From Nostoc sp. TH1S01 (GTDB lineage Bacteria > Cyanobacteriota > Cyanobacteriia > Cyanobacteriales > Nostocaceae): DNA of 64,000 nucleotides. Below the pieces are notes generated by a model, which made no database searches, had not been told where the DNA came from, and saw only the letters and a program-made list of their open reading frames with translations. Both the position numbers and the translations under genes were made by a program. Of the stretch, positions 54,164 through 64,000 are shown piece after piece; within the stretch, counting starts at the first letter, position 1; each line of letters begins with the position of its first letter. Location: NCBI GenBank assembly GCA_018993265.1, contig JAGKSW010000152.1, forward strand, positions 1 to 64,000. The letters are read 5' to 3'.

Positions 54164-54421
54164 ATGCAATCGGCGTTACGAATTGAAACTCAAGTTTTAC
54201 CAGGAAACAAAATTGAAATTAATTTGCCTAATGATACTGCTTTAACCTCAGTAGGAGAAACCGTTGAGGTGATTGTCTTGTTACCAGAACAGAAACCTGC
54301 ACTAAAAAGCCAATCCATTCTAACATTGCTTGAAGAAATTCATAGACAACGCCCTGTCGGAAGAAGTGTAGAGGAAATCAATCGAGATATACAGGTAGAG
54401 AAAGAGGCATGGGACAACTAA
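54164..54421 (+). CDS. Antitoxin of a VapBC-like pair
   Basis: This 85-aa protein has an N-terminal beta-rich part (ALRIETQVLPGNKIEINLPNDTALTSVGETVEVIVLLPE) like SpoVT/AbrB-type or related antitoxins of cyanobacteria. The C-terminal helix SILTLLEEIHRQRPVGRSVEEINRDIQVEKEAW is typical of antitoxins that wrap a PIN toxin. AGGAGAAGACC precedes the ATG. It overlaps the PIN gene by 13 bases. Confidence 0.82.
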   Translation: MQSALRIETQVLPGNKIEINLPNDTALTSVGETVEVIVLLPEQKPALKSQSILTLLEEIHRQRPVGRSVEEINRDIQVEKEAWDN

Positions 54422-54855
54422 CTTTTTCCAATGCTGACCGTATATACATTGATACAGTAACGATTATTTACGCCGTTGAACAGAACCCAACTTATGGAAT
54501 GTTGCTGAATCCTCTATGGAATAACCTTCAGACAGGAAACCTGGAAGTTTTTACCAGTGAACTGACTTTGATGGAAACCCTAGTCGTACCAATGAGAAAT
54601 TCAGATACGTTTCTGATTAATGCCTACGAGCGATTATTGCAATCACCCCAAATACAATTAGTTCCCATTAGTCAAGCCATCTTGAAGGAAGCAGCAAGAC
54701 TACGTGCTATTACACCTTCATTGAGAACACCCGATGCCATTCATCTTGCAACGGCTACAGCATTAGGCTGTACCCAGTTTCTCACCAATGACCGACAACT
54801 AAGAACAGTGTCAAACTTATTCATCGTGATTTTAGATGAAGTGCTGGCATTATGA
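54409..54855 (+). CDS. PIN-domain toxin (VapC-like)
   Basis: This 148-aa PIN RNase has acidic residues in the expected order: Asp in DRIYIDTVTIIYAVE, Glu in SELTLMETLV, Asp in TPDAIHLATATALGC and Asp in FLTNDRQL. It should cleave tRNA or rRNA when freed from the antitoxin encoded just upstream. The pair sits between the broken STAND gene and a CAP gene. Confidence 0.9.
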   Translation: MGQLTFSNADRIYIDTVTIIYAVEQNPTYGMLLNPLWNNLQTGNLEVFTSELTLMETLVVPMRNSDTFLINAYERLLQSPQIQLVPISQAILKEAARLRAITPSLRTPDAIHLATATALGCTQFLTNDRQLRTVSNLFIVILDEVLAL

Positions 54856-57693: not shown

Positions 57694-60084
57694 TTAATTT
57701 TTGACTTTTGCGATCGCCAACAGCAGTGTTTCTTCAATTTCTTGGCGAATCGCGGGTGTAATATTATTAGCAATATTCAGACAGTTTATCAATAATTTAT
57801 TAGCAATATAATATTGCTGAATTACTTCTATTTGCTGTTGACTAAACTGCCAATCATGACAAATGTTGCGATATTGAATTAAGAGTTCTCTAAATTTTTC
57901 GTTCCAGAATTTACCATGTTCTATCCACCACTTACGAAATTTATGAGGATGGTTGTGTGCATTTGGTAATTGTTTTTTTAAATTTTGGAGAAATTGCTTA
58001 AACTTAGACTCAATAACTAAATTTAGAGCTTTGTCAAAAGCAATATTTAAAGCATGAGCATAATCAAAAACAATAGCATCATTCAAAATATAGTTACAGG
58101 CAAATTCTAGTTCTCCAGCACAAGCAAAAGTACTAGCGAGAAACTCATCAATAGCCAGTTCTGGGTTGAAGGCTAAGTTGCCAATAATAGCACACTCCAA
58201 ACCGTAGCTAGATGAATTAGCGAAAACTTGGTGTTGAGGAGAATTACTTCCTTTCAGAAACACTTCTAATGAACGACCAACACAAACTAAGTAAAAAGCC
58301 CTAATCGCACCTGCTTGATATTGAGTCGCAACTGAGTTAGATTTTTGATATAGCCACAGTAGAAAATCTTGAATTTTCTGATCATTAGCGACTAAATCAT
58401 CTATTTTTTGTTTCATTACCCGCAGCATTTCTTCAGCATTGTTTAACATACTTACAGTCAGCAAGAAGACATTTTGCCAGCGTTTTTCGGGGAGATGAGT
58501 AATTAACTGATTGAGTGACTCCTTTTGGTAATTTATCACAATATTTTTTGCAGTTAAATACTCTTGCAAAGCCAAATGAGAGAAAGAATAAATCCCATGC
58601 GATCGCTGCACTAATAAACCATAATCTACCTCAAGTATTTTTAGTAATCTTTCACTATCTTGCATCTGCTGATTTATCAAAATTGAATCATTATAAACAT
58701 AGTAATTATATTTACTTAAATGCTGAGATATTAACGACTGGATTTGTTCTTGTTCAAAAAAATAATTTTCCTGCTCAAAAGTAATAGCCGCAATTTGAGC
58801 CAGGAGCTTTTTTGCACTAGCTATGCTGAAATGCCAGTCAATTGAATGCCTTTCAATACCTCTAACTTCATCCCATCGACCTAGCAAAATATTTAATGCT
58901 TCGTCATATAACTTAGTTGGTTTAAATGTAAATTCAGATTTTGCTTGAAATAATAAGCAAATAAAATGTAACAATATTGGTGTTATCGCTAATTCTCTTA
59001 ATTGCTTATTTTCTGGCAAATGCAATTGATGAATAAATAAATTTCCTATAGAATCTCCATCTTCCTTAGATTCATGAGCAACTGCTACGAACCAATTTTT
59101 TACAAAAGTTTCAGCTTGTTGCATATCAAAGTCGGAAATTTCAACTTCCGTAAATCCTGAAAATTTGTATTTTTGAGCTGCTATTCGACAACTAATCACA
59201 AACTGATTTTTGTAATAAGACTGATAAAATCGCCGAATTTCTTTATTAACCTGATTTACATACTCCGCTTGTACTTCATCTAATCCATCTAATAAAATCA
59301 ATGCTTGACCTTCAGTTAAAACGCTTAGTGTAGACTCTGCTTCAATCCCACAGCTTAGAAATTCTTGGCTAATATACTCCAATAAACTAAAATCACTATT
59401 ATCTTTAAAATCTTCAGTAAAGTCTTTGAGGCTGATAAATATAGCTACGTGATTCGGTTTTATTTCTCCTTGATTACACCCAAGCGCCAAGTATTTCAAA
59501 AATGTGGTTTTACCTGCACTTGGTTTACCCAACACCATCAACTTAGAGTACAGCGATGCAGCTTCTAACCCTGGTAATTTTTTGTGTAGCTGTGTTTGTC
59601 CAACTCGATTAAACCCTGATTCAAAACAAAAGTCTTTTAACAAATCTCCAATTTCTATCCATCTCTGACTAGTAATTTGTTCTAATACATAAACAGGAGT
59701 ATAAATATCAACCAACGGAATTGCTTGGGCAATATCTAACATTTGTACAGTACAGCACTGGTCTTGAATTTTTCCTTGGCGCTTTTGACGTATTTCCTGC
59801 ACCAATATATTTAAATCTCTCTTATTAATATTTGATTGAGCAATCGAATCTGAAGTTATATCTTCTGGCAATTCAGCAATTTTTTGCCAAGATAATCCTA
59901 AATGTTGGCAAATTTGTACAAAGCAACTACGAGAAACTGGCTCACCTGCAAAAAACTTAGATACTGGTTGACGTGTAATACCTAAAGCTATTGCTAATTT
60001 GTGTTGGCTTAAAGTTTTATCAGTTAAGGCTGTTTTCGCAGCTCTAATACCTTCTAAGGAAGCTCTGAGTCCTTGGCTTGTCAT
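57694..60084 (-). CDS. NACHT NTPase with N-terminal HTH domain
   Basis: This 796-aa STAND protein has an N-terminal XRE-like helix-turn-helix at residues 1-75 (LSQHKLAIALGITRQPVSKFFAGEPVSRSCFVQICQHLGL). A linker precedes the NACHT domain with Walker A VLGKPSAGKTTFLKYL (about 186) and Walker B ALILLDGLDEV. The C-terminal half is helical (LQEYLTAKNIV, then a NACHT-associated helical domain) with no LRR, WD40 or TPR. Cyanobacteria carry many such genes, and bacterial NACHT proteins include antiphage systems. The HTH may bind DNA or act as a signalling adaptor. No effector gene is adjacent. Confidence 0.88.
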   Translation of the reverse strand: MTSQGLRASLEGIRAAKTALTDKTLSQHKLAIALGITRQPVSKFFAGEPVSRSCFVQICQHLGLSWQKIAELPEDITSDSIAQSNINKRDLNILVQEIRQKRQGKIQDQCCTVQMLDIAQAIPLVDIYTPVYVLEQITSQRWIEIGDLLKDFCFESGFNRVGQTQLHKKLPGLEAASLYSKLMVLGKPSAGKTTFLKYLALGCNQGEIKPNHVAIFISLKDFTEDFKDNSDFSLLEYISQEFLSCGIEAESTLSVLTEGQALILLDGLDEVQAEYVNQVNKEIRRFYQSYYKNQFVISCRIAAQKYKFSGFTEVEISDFDMQQAETFVKNWFVAVAHESKEDGDSIGNLFIHQLHLPENKQLRELAITPILLHFICLLFQAKSEFTFKPTKLYDEALNILLGRWDEVRGIERHSIDWHFSIASAKKLLAQIAAITFEQENYFFEQEQIQSLISQHLSKYNYYVYNDSILINQQMQDSERLLKILEVDYGLLVQRSHGIYSFSHLALQEYLTAKNIVINYQKESLNQLITHLPEKRWQNVFLLTVSMLNNAEEMLRVMKQKIDDLVANDQKIQDFLLWLYQKSNSVATQYQAGAIRAFYLVCVGRSLEVFLKGSNSPQHQVFANSSSYGLECAIIGNLAFNPELAIDEFLASTFACAGELEFACNYILNDAIVFDYAHALNIAFDKALNLVIESKFKQFLQNLKKQLPNAHNHPHKFRKWWIEHGKFWNEKFRELLIQYRNICHDWQFSQQQIEVIQQYYIANKLLINCLNIANNITPAIRQEIEETLLLAIAKVKN

Positions 60085-62006: not shown

Positions 62007-62435
62007 ATGAAACAAATGAATATGTCAGAACCAAATCCTGCCGGTTCAAAACTGTTTACAGATACAGAAAGCTTTTTAGAAGACTTAGGTGATACAGAAG
62101 CTATGGCTGTACAAGGCGGAGAAGGCGCTCTATTCCTGCCATACATCGCCTATGGTCAGAAGTTTCTAGAGTATGGCGTGAACGGATTTGCGATCGCTAA
62201 TATTGCATCCATTGCCAAATCATTTAGTGCTGCTGGTATCGGTGGCTTTGGTGGTGCTGGTGGTGGTGCTGGTGGTGGCGCTGGTGGTGTTGGTGATGCT
62301 GGTGCTGGCGGCGCTGGTGGTGCTGGTGGTGCTGGTGCTGCGCCTGTTGCGCCTGCTGCGCCTGCTGGTAGTGTTGGTGGTGCTGGTGCGGCTGGTTTGC
62401 ATGGTCTCAGTGGCAGCATAACCTATACGTTGTAG
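62007..62435 (+). CDS. Double-Gly leader peptide precursor 1 (RiPP-like), 142 aa
   Basis: GGAGG 8 bases upstream fixes ATG 62007. The leader (about residues 1-38) is acidic and ends DTEAMAVQGG, a double-Gly processing site. The core EGALFLPYIAYGQKFLEYG is followed by hydrophobic VNGFAIANIASIAKSFSAAG, then a Gly/Ala tail of about 65 residues, which in this copy includes Pro and ends SGSITYTL. There is no Cys anywhere. Three paralogues stand in tandem upstream of a HopA1-family gene. I infer a modified secreted peptide; the product is unknown. Confidence 0.75.
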   Translation: MKQMNMSEPNPAGSKLFTDTESFLEDLGDTEAMAVQGGEGALFLPYIAYGQKFLEYGVNGFAIANIASIAKSFSAAGIGGFGGAGGGAGGGAGGVGDAGAGGAGGAGGAGAAPVAPAAPAGSVGGAGAAGLHGLSGSITYTL

Positions 62436-62521
62436 TTTGCTGGTCAATCAAGTTCTTACAATCAACAACACAACCACAAACAAGTTTAGGTATTGAATGT
62501 ATTGAATTAGGAGAAAAAACA

Positions 62522-62854
62522 ATGGTCAACATCAATGGTTCTGCATTACATCCAACAGGTTCTGAATTGTTTACAGATACAGAAAGCTTTTTAGAAGACT
62601 TAGGTGATACAGAAGCGATGGCTGTACAAGGCGGAGAAGGCGCTTTATTCCTGCCATACATCGCCTATGGTCAGAAGTTTCTAGAGTATGGCGTGAACGG
62701 ATTTGCGATCGCTAATATTGCATCCATCGCCAAGTCATTTAGTGCTGCTGGTATTCTTGGCCTTGGTGGTGCTGGTGGTGCTGGCGGTGCTGGTGGTGGT
62801 GCTGGTGGTGGTGCTGGTGGTGGCGCTGGTGGTGTTGGCGGTGCTGCCGAATAG
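62522..62854 (+). CDS. Double-Gly leader peptide precursor 2 (RiPP-like), 110 aa
   Basis: AGGAG precedes ATG 62522. The leader GSELFTDTESFLEDLGDTEA, then MAVQGG, and the core LFLPYIAYGQKFLEYG with IANIASIAKSFSAAG are virtually identical to precursor 1. The tail is shorter (ILGLGGAGGAGGAGGGAGGG..., ending GGAAE). Only Ser residues (three in IASIAKSFS) could be dehydrated; no Cys or Thr follows the GG. The intergenic distance to precursor 1 is 86 bases. Confidence 0.75.
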   Translation: MVNINGSALHPTGSELFTDTESFLEDLGDTEAMAVQGGEGALFLPYIAYGQKFLEYGVNGFAIANIASIAKSFSAAGILGLGGAGGAGGAGGGAGGGAGGGAGGVGGAAE

Positions 62855-62935
62855 ATGGTCATTTGCTGGTCAATAGGATTTAGCAATTCACACATGAATT
62901 CCAAAGAAGTTTAGCTATTGAATAGGAGAAAAACA

Positions 62936-63265
62936 ATGGTCAACATTAATGCATCTAAAATCAATCCTGCTGGTTCTGAACTGTTCACAGATGCAGAAAA
63001 CTTTCTCGAAGACTTAACTGATACAGAAGCTATGGCTGTGCAGGGAGGAGAAGGCGATTTATTTCTGCCATATATTGCCTTCGGTCAGAAGTTTCTAGAG
63101 TATGGCGTAAACGGATTTGCGATCGCTAATATTGCATCCATTGCTAAGTCATTTAGTGCTGCTGGCGCTGGTGCTGGCGCTGGTGGTGCTGGCGGTGCTG
63201 GCGCTGGTGGTGCTGGCGCTGGTGCTGGTGGTGTTGGCGGTGGTGGTGCTGGTGGTGCCTTCTAG
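62936..63265 (+). CDS. Double-Gly leader peptide precursor 3 (RiPP-like), 109 aa
   Basis: AGGAG lies before ATG 62936. It is more diverged in the leader (DAENFLEDLTDTEAMAVQGG), has D for A after GEG and F for Y in YIAFGQKF, but an identical VNGFAIANIASIAKSFSAAG. The tail is Gly/Ala only (GAGAGAGGAGGAG...) and ends GGAF. It is the last precursor before the HopA1 gene, with a 9-bp hairpin in the 123-base gap. Confidence 0.75.
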   Translation: MVNINASKINPAGSELFTDAENFLEDLTDTEAMAVQGGEGDLFLPYIAFGQKFLEYGVNGFAIANIASIAKSFSAAGAGAGAGGAGGAGAGGAGAGAGGVGGGGAGGAF

Positions 63266-63285
63266 ATTGTCATTTGTTAGTCAAT

Positions 63286-63313
63286 AGGATTCAGTTATTA
63301 ATAGCTGAATCCT
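63286..63313 (+). terminator. Hairpin after the third precursor
   Basis: AGGATTCAG and CTGAATCCT form a 9-bp stem with a 10-nt loop and no T-run. It may partly stop or process the transcript between the precursors and the HopA1 gene, giving more precursor than enzyme. Confidence 0.5.
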
Positions 63314-63388
63314 ACTCAAGTCAGACAATTAGTAGTAAGTCTATTTTAAAAAATCATATTTTTATAATTGAATAATGTGATTAAAAGT

Positions 63389-64000
63389 ATGCAGTTACTA
63401 AGTTCAATTTCGTTACAAAACTTTGAACACAGACTACTAACTTCTTTGCTAGACATAGCCAGTAACCTTAACATTCAGTCTAACTTTTGTATTTCTCATC
63501 CTAAATACAAACCCTTGAAACTACCAGAAGAAGCGGTAGTACGCTTTCAACAATTACCTTTAAAGCTTCAGCACAAGTTTTTAAGTTCACAATTGTGCAA
63601 TTTTCTCTACGGTATTTATTATAACGGTGCTGGCAAAAAGGCTCTGTCTTTAGATATAAATCTAATGGATTCAACAATGCCTAACAATTTAGAAAACAAT
63701 ACTTATTTTGGAGTAGATGTAGAGTTTTATGAGCAATTACACTTATCCAATAAAGGTAGAGGCTACTTTGACCCCGGTTGGCAAGTTTTAAGGGAAGAGA
63801 GCGATCGCTCTGTGGTGGTGAAAAAAGCTGGCTTGACTTTGTATATAGAACGCGATCGCCATCTTCGAGATAGAGAAAAAAATGCGATCGCTGGAGATAT
63901 GGTGGCCGTCCAAATGCCTCGTAATTTGGTGCAGAACGGTTTTTATATGGCTGTTGGCGATGCTGGATTATCAAGTTCTGCTGATCATGCAATCAATTTA
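63389..64000 (+). CDS. HopA1-family protein, N-terminal part (runs off the window)
   Basis: The frame is open from ATG 63389 to the last base (204 codons), so the gene is partial. Visible motifs are SNFCISHPKYKPLKLPEEAVVRFQQLPLKLQHKFLSSQL, NFLYGIYYNG, LENNTYFGVDVEFYEQLHLSNKGRGYFDPGWQVLREESD and QNGFYMAVGDAG, which I recognise as the cyanobacterial HopA1-like family (PF17914 relatives). In class V lanthipeptide pathways HopA1-domain proteins act as the lyase that eliminates phospho-Ser/Thr to dehydroamino acids with a kinase-like partner. That partner would be expected just beyond this window. Confidence 0.75.
   Translation, partial: MQLLSSISLQNFEHRLLTSLLDIASNLNIQSNFCISHPKYKPLKLPEEAVVRFQQLPLKLQHKFLSSQLCNFLYGIYYNGAGKKALSLDINLMDSTMPNNLENNTYFGVDVEFYEQLHLSNKGRGYFDPGWQVLREESDRSVVVKKAGLTLYIERDRHLRDREKNAIAGDMVAVQMPRNLVQNGFYMAVGDAGLSSSADHAINL

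What the first reader, a model, noticed from the sequence alone, without database searches (positions are those of the whole stretch)
62007..64000. Tandem Cys-free double-Gly precursors next to a HopA1-family gene: candidate new RiPP locus
Three consecutive short genes share an acidic leader ending in QGG, an almost invariant hydrophobic core with three Ser, and variable Gly/Ala tails, followed by a HopA1-like gene. HopA1 proteins are known as lyase partners in class V lanthipeptide synthesis, but these cores contain no Cys, so thioether rings are excluded. The product could be a Dha-bearing, membrane-active helix or something different.
Basis: partly seen in the sequence, partly recalled or inferred. 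Interest (0 to 1): 0.88.

Follow-up and report, generated by a model that had tools for sequence, protein, structure and literature searches.

The report
Kinase-less lanthipeptide-like peptide gene cluster
A filamentous cyanobacterium carries three small cysteine-free export peptides next to half of a two-part peptide-modifying enzyme whose other half, a kinase, is missing at this spot but present elsewhere in the genome; the peptide family is known but uncharacterised, and this stripped-down version suggests that its parts are shared across a genome.

Summary
In detail: three Cys-free double-Gly precursors (62007-63265) and a HopA1 gene (63389-64510; PF17914 E 3.8e-56). It is not a new RiPP kind: it resembles the cyanobacterial HopA1-linked 'Family 1A' already in print (PMC8153245). 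Unusual: no kinase and no exporter in cis. Among 90 HopA1 genes the four kinase-less ones near precursors form one clade among kinase-bearing loci, so one kinase loss by parsimony. At the same site three relatives lack HopA1 too, yet keep precursors with mainly synonymous changes. The window HopA1 keeps R/K/R/Y at the spacing of CaoY's catalytic residues. Best reading: Ser dehydration (KSFS motif after GG) with the kinase of contig C9 acting in trans, and export in trans. No product has been seen. A by-product may matter more: the catalytic Lys is present in 54 of 55 HopA1s near precursors and is Gln, Glu or His in 35 of 35 without; 40 of 40 further loci agree. That marks a conserved kinase plus pseudo-lyase pair, mostly beside a thioesterase gene.

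The parts
62007..62435 (+). precursor 1, 142 aa, double-Gly leader, Cys-free, long Gly/Ala tail ending SGSITYTL
   Evidence: homologues
62522..62854 (+). precursor 2, 110 aa
   Evidence: AlphaFold helices 14-32 and 45-74, low confidence
62936..63265 (+). precursor 3, 109 aa
63389..64000 (+). 5' part of the HopA1-family lyase gene (LanY-like); the gene ends at C111 position 64510, 510 bases beyond the window; the residues that match CaoY R187, K219, R229, Y236 by spacing lie beyond the window and are all present
   Evidence: PF17914 3.8e-56; weak match to solved lyase 9dk1_B, E 0.00016; residues
60609..61325 (+). response-regulator gene: left border of the site (conserved neighbour, not claimed as part of the pathway)
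   Evidence: same neighbour in the seven genomes with the locus, own included, and at the empty sites L213, L214

Best explanation
A reduced cluster of the cyanobacterial HopA1-associated RiPP family. Shown: three precursors with double-Gly leaders, a HopA1 gene with the expected active-site residues, an HTH gene and a rotamase gene stand together between a response regulator and lysS; kinase and exporter genes are absent there and present elsewhere in the genome. Inferred by parsimony from the HopA1 tree: the kinase was lost once on the line to the four kinase-less HopA1s. Inferred: the LxmK-like kinase of the C9 cluster, whose own precursors share the leader (LFxDxESFLxDLxD) and the post-GG K-S-F-S motif, phosphorylates Ser (most likely the KSFS serines) of the window peptides in trans; HopA1 (the window's or C9's) eliminates phosphate to give dehydroalanine; without Cys no lanthionine forms, so the product is a linear, hydrophobic, probably helical Dha-bearing peptide (or a reduced one); a C39 transporter encoded elsewhere (C144 or C209, both beside the same rotamase family) removes the leader after GG and exports it.
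For: HopA1 identity, with R215/K246/R256/Y263 (numbered from TTG 63368) at spacings 31, 10, 7 against 32, 10, 7 for CaoY R187/K219/R229/Y236 (PMC9486802 section 6); K, R and Y align with those of 9dk1_B. The four kinase-less HopA1s near precursors are one clade, 100/98, sister to kinase-bearing L142. Only two kinases of this kind in the own genome, C9 and C196; C9 is the one paired with a Lys-bearing HopA1, C196's HopA1 has Gln there. dN/dS of the kinase-less HopA1s 0.19-0.30 (six pairs); precursors of the two HopA1-less genomes G005 and G006 also differ mainly at synonymous sites (L090|8732 vs L093|10380: leader dN 0.011, dS 0.282; segment after GG 0.012, 0.158). A1 precursor matches occur in 28 of 28 family genomes with a Lys-bearing HopA1 and 0 of 8 without. 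K[ST][FY][ST] after GG in 96 of 212 precursor hits, 1.7 expected by shuffling. C39 transporters in stretches with HlyD-like and rotamase genes in trans.
Against: No product or modification has been observed. No kinase in cis, and at the same site three genomes keep precursors without HopA1; the rotamase frame is split in one of them (L093). The kinase-less HopA1s have higher dN/dS (0.19-0.30) than C9-type (0.10-0.24) or C196-type pairs (0.08-0.18), and their N-terminal part diverged more from L142 (N/C ratio 1.23-1.59 against 1.12 and 1.07 for two kinase-bearing loci), as expected if kinase contact weakened. For another pair of HopA1-less precursors (L090|9469 vs L093|9546) the leader is less constrained (dN 0.034, dS 0.093). 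The KSFS motif is missing in 116 of 212 hits, some doubtful members. Published Family 1A cores are said to lack conserved Ser/Thr (PMC8153245). L142 is not at the window's site (in its genome, G025, that site holds no cluster, L216), so kinase loss may have come with a move. The helix model is weak (mean pLDDT 54). With the broader model A2, 2 of 16 genomes with only a non-Lys HopA1 have one weak precursor match each.
Confidence: 0.5

Rival explanations
1. The peptides are exported double-Gly peptides that work unmodified (bacteriocin-like or a signal, as GG small proteins do in Synechococcus biofilm control); HopA1 is a leftover at this site.
For: HopA1 absent in three of seven genomes with the locus while precursors are kept, in G005 in four copies, and conserved; further precursors without HopA1 in cis; no kinase in cis; precedent of GG secreted small proteins (PMC4997328, start of abstract in the listing).
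Against: HopA1 keeps its four active-site-type residues and dN/dS well under 1 in four kinase-less genomes; all 32 genomes with an A1 precursor match carry HopA1; the closest complete relative L142 has kinase and HopA1 beside the same precursor type.
Confidence: 0.27
2. The window locus is a decaying remnant: kinase lost, then HopA1, then rotamase in relatives, with precursors last to go, and no function now.
For: Series of absences at one site, empty sites in G001 and G008, raised dN/dS of HopA1.
Against: Intact frames in the window locus, dN/dS well under 1 for HopA1 and for the precursor segment after GG, four precursor copies in the HopA1-less G005.
Confidence: 0.11
3. HopA1 acts without the class V kinase: it eliminates phosphate placed by another kinase of the cell (for example a Hanks-type kinase), on these peptides or on another target.
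For: HopA1 kept without a kinase beside it in four genomes; the P. syringae HopA1 is an effector that presumably works without such a bacterial kinase (my inference from PMC9486802, section 6).
Against: CaoK and CaoY form a complex and their gene families co-occur (PMC9486802, section 6); a C9-type kinase, 56-58% identical to that of L142, exists in trans in all seven genomes with the locus.
Confidence: 0.1

Closest known systems
Cyanobacterial HopA1-associated 'Family 1A' putative RiPPs (Eyles et al. 2021, PMC8153245; section 16 and passages read)
   Same: HopA1 gene, cyanobacteria, several non-identical precursors, conserved double-Gly leader, no conserved Cys
   Different: No phosphotransferase beside the window HopA1 (the paper: 96% of 1,340 HopA1 proteins have one); here the post-GG segment is conserved, with a K-S-F-S type motif in 96 of 212 hits, where the paper reports no conserved Ser/Thr in the core. 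Membership of its peptide list was not checked
Class V lanthipeptides, cacaoidin CaoK/CaoY (PMC9486802; sections 6 and 7 and passages read)
   Same: PF17914 lyase with R, K, R, Y at nearly the same spacing; kinases of the genome match NF038156 LxmK below its cut-off
   Different: No Cys, so no lanthionine or AviMeCys from these peptides; kinase not in the cluster
Cyanobacterial bacteriocin clusters groups I and II (Wang et al. 2011, PMC3140520; passages read)
   Same: Rotamase (SurA), HlyD, long C39 transporter, M16 and HetP-like genes occur around related loci here (several names are my reading)
   Different: The window locus has only the rotamase of these; 'phosphotransferase' occurs 0 times in the paper's main text; I did not ask it for HopA1
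Stand-alone LanM with remote clusters, Prochlorococcus MIT9313 (as described in PMC3140520, passages read)
   Same: Modifying enzyme and other parts of the pathway in different places of one genome
   Different: Different enzyme class; in the window case trans service is inferred, not shown

Membership tests
Cyanobacterial HopA1-associated RiPP family (Family 1A type) | HopA1 (PF17914) gene beside several short precursors | tested here: met
Cyanobacterial HopA1-associated RiPP family (Family 1A type) | Conserved double-Gly leader shared with precursors of kinase-HopA1 clusters | tested here: met
Cyanobacterial HopA1-associated RiPP family (Family 1A type) | Phosphotransferase beside HopA1 (96% of cases in the paper, so usual, not absolute) | tested here: not met
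Cyanobacterial HopA1-associated RiPP family (Family 1A type) | Direct match to the published peptide list of Family 1A | not tested
Class V lanthipeptide | LanK kinase in the cluster | tested here: not met
   no kinase on L009, no kinase match by tblastn there; in the genome only on C9 and C196
Class V lanthipeptide | LanY lyase with catalytic Arg, Lys, Arg, Tyr | tested here: met
   by spacing against residue numbers in PMC9486802; CaoY itself was not aligned
Class V lanthipeptide | Cys in the core for lanthionine or AviMeCys | tested here: not met
   no Cys in the three precursors; 185 of 212 related hits Cys-free after GG
Class V lanthipeptide | Dehydrated Ser/Thr in the product | not testable with these tools
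   needs mass spectrometry
C39-exported double-Gly peptide | GG leader with a C39 transporter in the cluster | tested here: not met
   leader present; no C39 match on C111, seven elsewhere in the genome

The most novel reading that the evidence does not exclude
In this cyanobacterial family the class V dehydratase has come apart: a lyase gene that lives on with its own peptides but without a kinase (window), peptides that live on with neither enzyme beside them, and, in 35 of 36 family genomes examined, an inherited kinase paired with a HopA1 whose catalytic Lys is Gln, Glu or His and that has no recognisable peptide beside it. The last pair would be a kinase with a pseudo-lyase as substrate adaptor, whose product stays phosphorylated or that serves some cell process; the first would be fed by a kinase in trans.
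Probability: 0.3. Interest if true: 0.72.

Novelty: new variant of a known kind. Interest (0 to 1): 0.5.

Why it matters
It offers a natural experiment on a poorly understood enzyme pair: kinase and lyase of class V-type dehydratases can be separated in evolution while the lyase keeps its active-site residues, which asks directly whether the lyase needs its own kinase and whether one kinase serves several loci. The Lys/Gln split across 130 HopA1 genes also gives a simple rule for telling peptide-linked HopA1s from a conserved pseudo-lyase branch, useful for genome mining.

Tried and rejected
NCBIfam and Pfam gave no family for the precursors. The idea that the IS630-like ORF behind HopA1 is a transposon that displaced the kinase was rejected: the same HTH family occurs in 31 of 54 precursor+HopA1 loci and stands between HopA1 and the rotamase in L080, L087, L104 and L142 too. 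The idea that the precursor-less C196 pair serves the window peptides was set aside: its HopA1 lacks the catalytic Lys, and 8 of 8 family genomes that hold only this pair have no A1 match (with A2 one of these eight has a marginal match, E 5.9e-4). A look for an overlooked precursor beside such pairs (ORF families shared by at least 6 of 34 loci) showed, to my eye, no double-Gly peptide, only ordinary genes and shadow frames. Domain-wise divergence as a test of lost kinase contact was inconclusive: among the four kinase-less genes the N/C ratio is 0.89, against L142 it is 1.23-1.59. Promoter and terminator scans were near shuffled numbers. The precursor model had low confidence, so no fold search was run. 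Rows left out or doubtful: two PF17914 fragments (G017:C297, G054:C76) were not fetched; the 212 precursor hits come from an iterated profile and include doubtful members (for example L172 7226-7501); the pattern covered 133 of 212; 'near precursors' means a profile hit within 7 kb; one HopA1 (L100) lies at a contig edge, so its missing kinase and precursors say nothing (it is counted among the 35 without precursors); the 40 hold-out loci were picked by me from listed places of genomes not seen before, not at random.

Full report
What is in the window. The last 2 kb hold three tandem precursor genes (62007-62435, 62522-62854, 62936-63265) and the first 612 bases of a HopA1-family gene from ATG 63389. 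The window is part of contig C111 of genome G000, a 7.65 Mb draft; the contig goes on to 80,033. Reading on (L009 = C111:60000-79000): HopA1 ends at 64510, then an HTH gene (C111 64990-65652), a rotamase gene (65682-66416) and lysS on the other strand. HopA1 matches PF17914 at 3.8e-56; the rotamase matches PF00639 (1.2e-5) and TIGR04500 'putative peptide maturation system protein' (1.1e-18, under its cut-off). The precursors match no Pfam or NCBIfam family.

The same genome. PF17914 occurs three times: C9, C196 and C111. LxmK-like kinases (NF038156, under the cut-off) occur twice, on C9 and C196, each next to a HopA1; a search with the kinase of the nearest complete cluster, L142, again finds only these two in G000. 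C9 holds six tandem Cys-free precursors homologous to those in the window, a kinase, a HopA1 and a rotamase. C196 has kinase and HopA1 and no precursor. C39 peptidase domains occur in seven places, none on C111; those of 1,020-1,055 aa on C144 and C209, which I take for the 'long type' of PMC3140520 by length, stand in stretches with HlyD-like and rotamase genes of the same families.

Relatives. In 60 genomes (own included) PF17914 is found in 41 and the precursor model A1 in 32; all 32 are among the 41. I fetched 100 loci and scanned them plus L009 with profiles grown from the genome's own genes: 90 HopA1, 85 kinases, 61 rotamases, 212 precursor hits (some doubtful). Of 54 loci with precursor and HopA1, 50 have the kinase, 39 the rotamase, 33 a C39-transporter-like gene, 32 HlyD, 31 the HTH gene, and 16 an aldo/keto-reductase-like gene right behind HopA1 (several loci are cut by contig ends; the names of HlyD, transporter and reductase are my reading). 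Ten fetched stretches have precursor hits and no HopA1: L090, L093, L101 at the window's site, and L131, L132, L133, L143, L146, L166, L167 elsewhere, L132 and L143 reaching a contig end and L166 beginning at one.

Kinase loss. Four HopA1s near precursors lack a kinase: G000 (window), G002, G004, G010. In a tree of the 90 they are one clade (100/98), sister to L142 of another genus, which has precursors, kinase, HopA1, HTH and rotamase in that order. The site, response regulator to lysS, is the same in G000, G004 and G010 (G002 shares the response-regulator side). In G005, G006 and G009 the same site has precursors, HTH and rotamase but no HopA1 and no kinase, and tblastn at 1e-3 finds no remnant of either; in G006 the rotamase frame is split. 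G001 and G008 have the response regulator next to lysS with nothing between; G007 has the response regulator without lysS or the cluster beside it; G003 has no close match to it (best 63%). In G025 the response-regulator site holds no cluster (L216), so L142 sits elsewhere: the single kinase loss is parsimony, and it may have come with a move of the cluster. Contigs of G005, G002 and G010 agree in length with contigs of Nostoc spongiaeforme FACHB-130, Fortiea sp. LEGE XX443 and Nostoc sp. CHAB 5844.

Selection. Among the four kinase-less HopA1s dN/dS is 0.19-0.30 (six pairs); for nine C9-type genes 0.10-0.24 (36 pairs), for eight C196-type genes 0.08-0.18 (28 pairs). So the kinase-less lyase is conserved but less strictly. 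Precursors of the HopA1-less G005 and G006 differ mainly at synonymous sites in one pair (L090|8732 vs L093|10380: leader 0.011 vs 0.282, post-GG segment 0.012 vs 0.158) and less clearly in another (L090|9469 vs L093|9546: 0.034 vs 0.093 and 0.023 vs 0.163). The sequences are short and exchange between copies is possible.

Catalytic residues. PMC9486802 (section 6) reports CaoY K219A without lyase activity, R187A nearly so, R229Q inefficient, and Y236 conserved. The window HopA1 has R215, K246, R256, Y263 (numbered from TTG 63368) at spacings 31, 10, 7 against 32, 10, 7, and its K, R and Y align with K, R and Y of the solved lyase 9dk1_B (E 0.00016). CaoY itself was not aligned. Near precursors the Lys is present in 54 of 55 HopA1s (50 of 51 with kinase, 4 of 4 without); the exception, in L170, lies beside a copy with all four residues. 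All four residues are present in 47 of the 51 with kinase; three Lys-bearing ones (L151, L159, L171) lack others. In 35 of 35 HopA1s without precursors the Lys is Gln, Glu or His. In 40 loci from genomes not used before, 19 of 19 with precursors have Lys and 21 of 21 without have Gln or Glu. The 35 Lys-less genes without precursors form one branch of the tree (100/97) and occur in 35 of 36 family genomes, all but G023. Lys-less genes have a thioesterase gene within 2 kb in 32 of 36 and 15 of 21 cases, Lys-bearing ones in 0 of 54 and 0 of 19. Kinases without precursors near keep all six checked residues in 31 of 34, those with precursors in 50 of 51. The genes around C196 look like phylloquinone (men) genes (my reading).

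The post-GG segment. K[ST][FY][ST] follows GG in 96 of 212 hits against 1.7 in shuffled segments. In the 133 hits that fit a strict leader pattern, the two hydroxyl positions are Ser/Thr in 96 of 119 and 94 of 116 rows with a residue there. 185 of 212 are Cys-free after GG. AlphaFold gives helices 14-32 and 45-74, the second ending at KSFS, at low confidence.

What follows. The C9 kinase is the natural partner: in G000 it is the kinase paired with a Lys-bearing HopA1 and with precursors of the same leader and motif. Genome-wide, A1 precursors occur in 28 of 28 family genomes with a Lys-bearing HopA1 and 0 of 8 without; with the broader model A2, in 6 of 6 against 2 of 16, the two being single weak matches. 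These genomes share ancestry, so the counts are not independent trials. Modification in trans is favoured but unproven.

Prior art. HopA1-phosphotransferase pairs in cyanobacterial RiPP-like clusters are described (PMC8153245, section 16); clusters of C39 transporter, HlyD, SurA/rotamase and precursors are described (PMC3140520, passages); dehydration by kinase plus HopA1 protein is shown for cacaoidin (PMC9486802, sections 6, 7 and passages). In seven paper searches the listings that I saw show no report of a product of this cyanobacterial family, of kinase-less members, or of the Lys-less branch. I opened three papers; two of the four papers that hold HopA1, lanthipeptide and cyanobacteria (PMC7794033, PMC10880069) were not opened; one search listed ten of 2,055 papers, none with HopA1, which is weak; and the library lacks many journals.

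Noticed in passing
L010:7986-10430 (contig C196); orthologues such as L116, L173, L230: Conserved kinase + HopA1 pair without precursors in 35 of 36 family genomes, HopA1 catalytic Lys replaced by Gln, Glu or His, mostly beside a thioesterase gene near men-like genes: a candidate kinase with pseudo-lyase.
   Followed up: partly
L009:4991-5653 (C111 64990-65652): HTH protein that matches the N-terminal part of the IS630 transposase model is a regular member of these clusters (31 of 54 loci), perhaps a domesticated regulator.
   Followed up: partly
L094:11675-12697, L081:9652-10692, L112:10135-11175: Aldo/keto-reductase-like gene (my reading) directly behind HopA1 in 16 of 54 loci; could reduce dehydro residues.
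   Followed up: no
L208:8393-8848, L141:4142-4438: HetP-like small proteins (my reading) near an exporter or HopA1, as reported for cyanobacterial bacteriocin clusters (PMC3140520, passages).
   Followed up: no
window 57694-60084: 796-aa protein with an N-terminal HTH-like part and a P-loop NTPase (NACHT-like by eye), also near the site in related genomes.
   Followed up: no
window 54164-54855: Small gene followed by a PIN-like protein gene, looks like a toxin-antitoxin pair (by eye).
   Followed up: no
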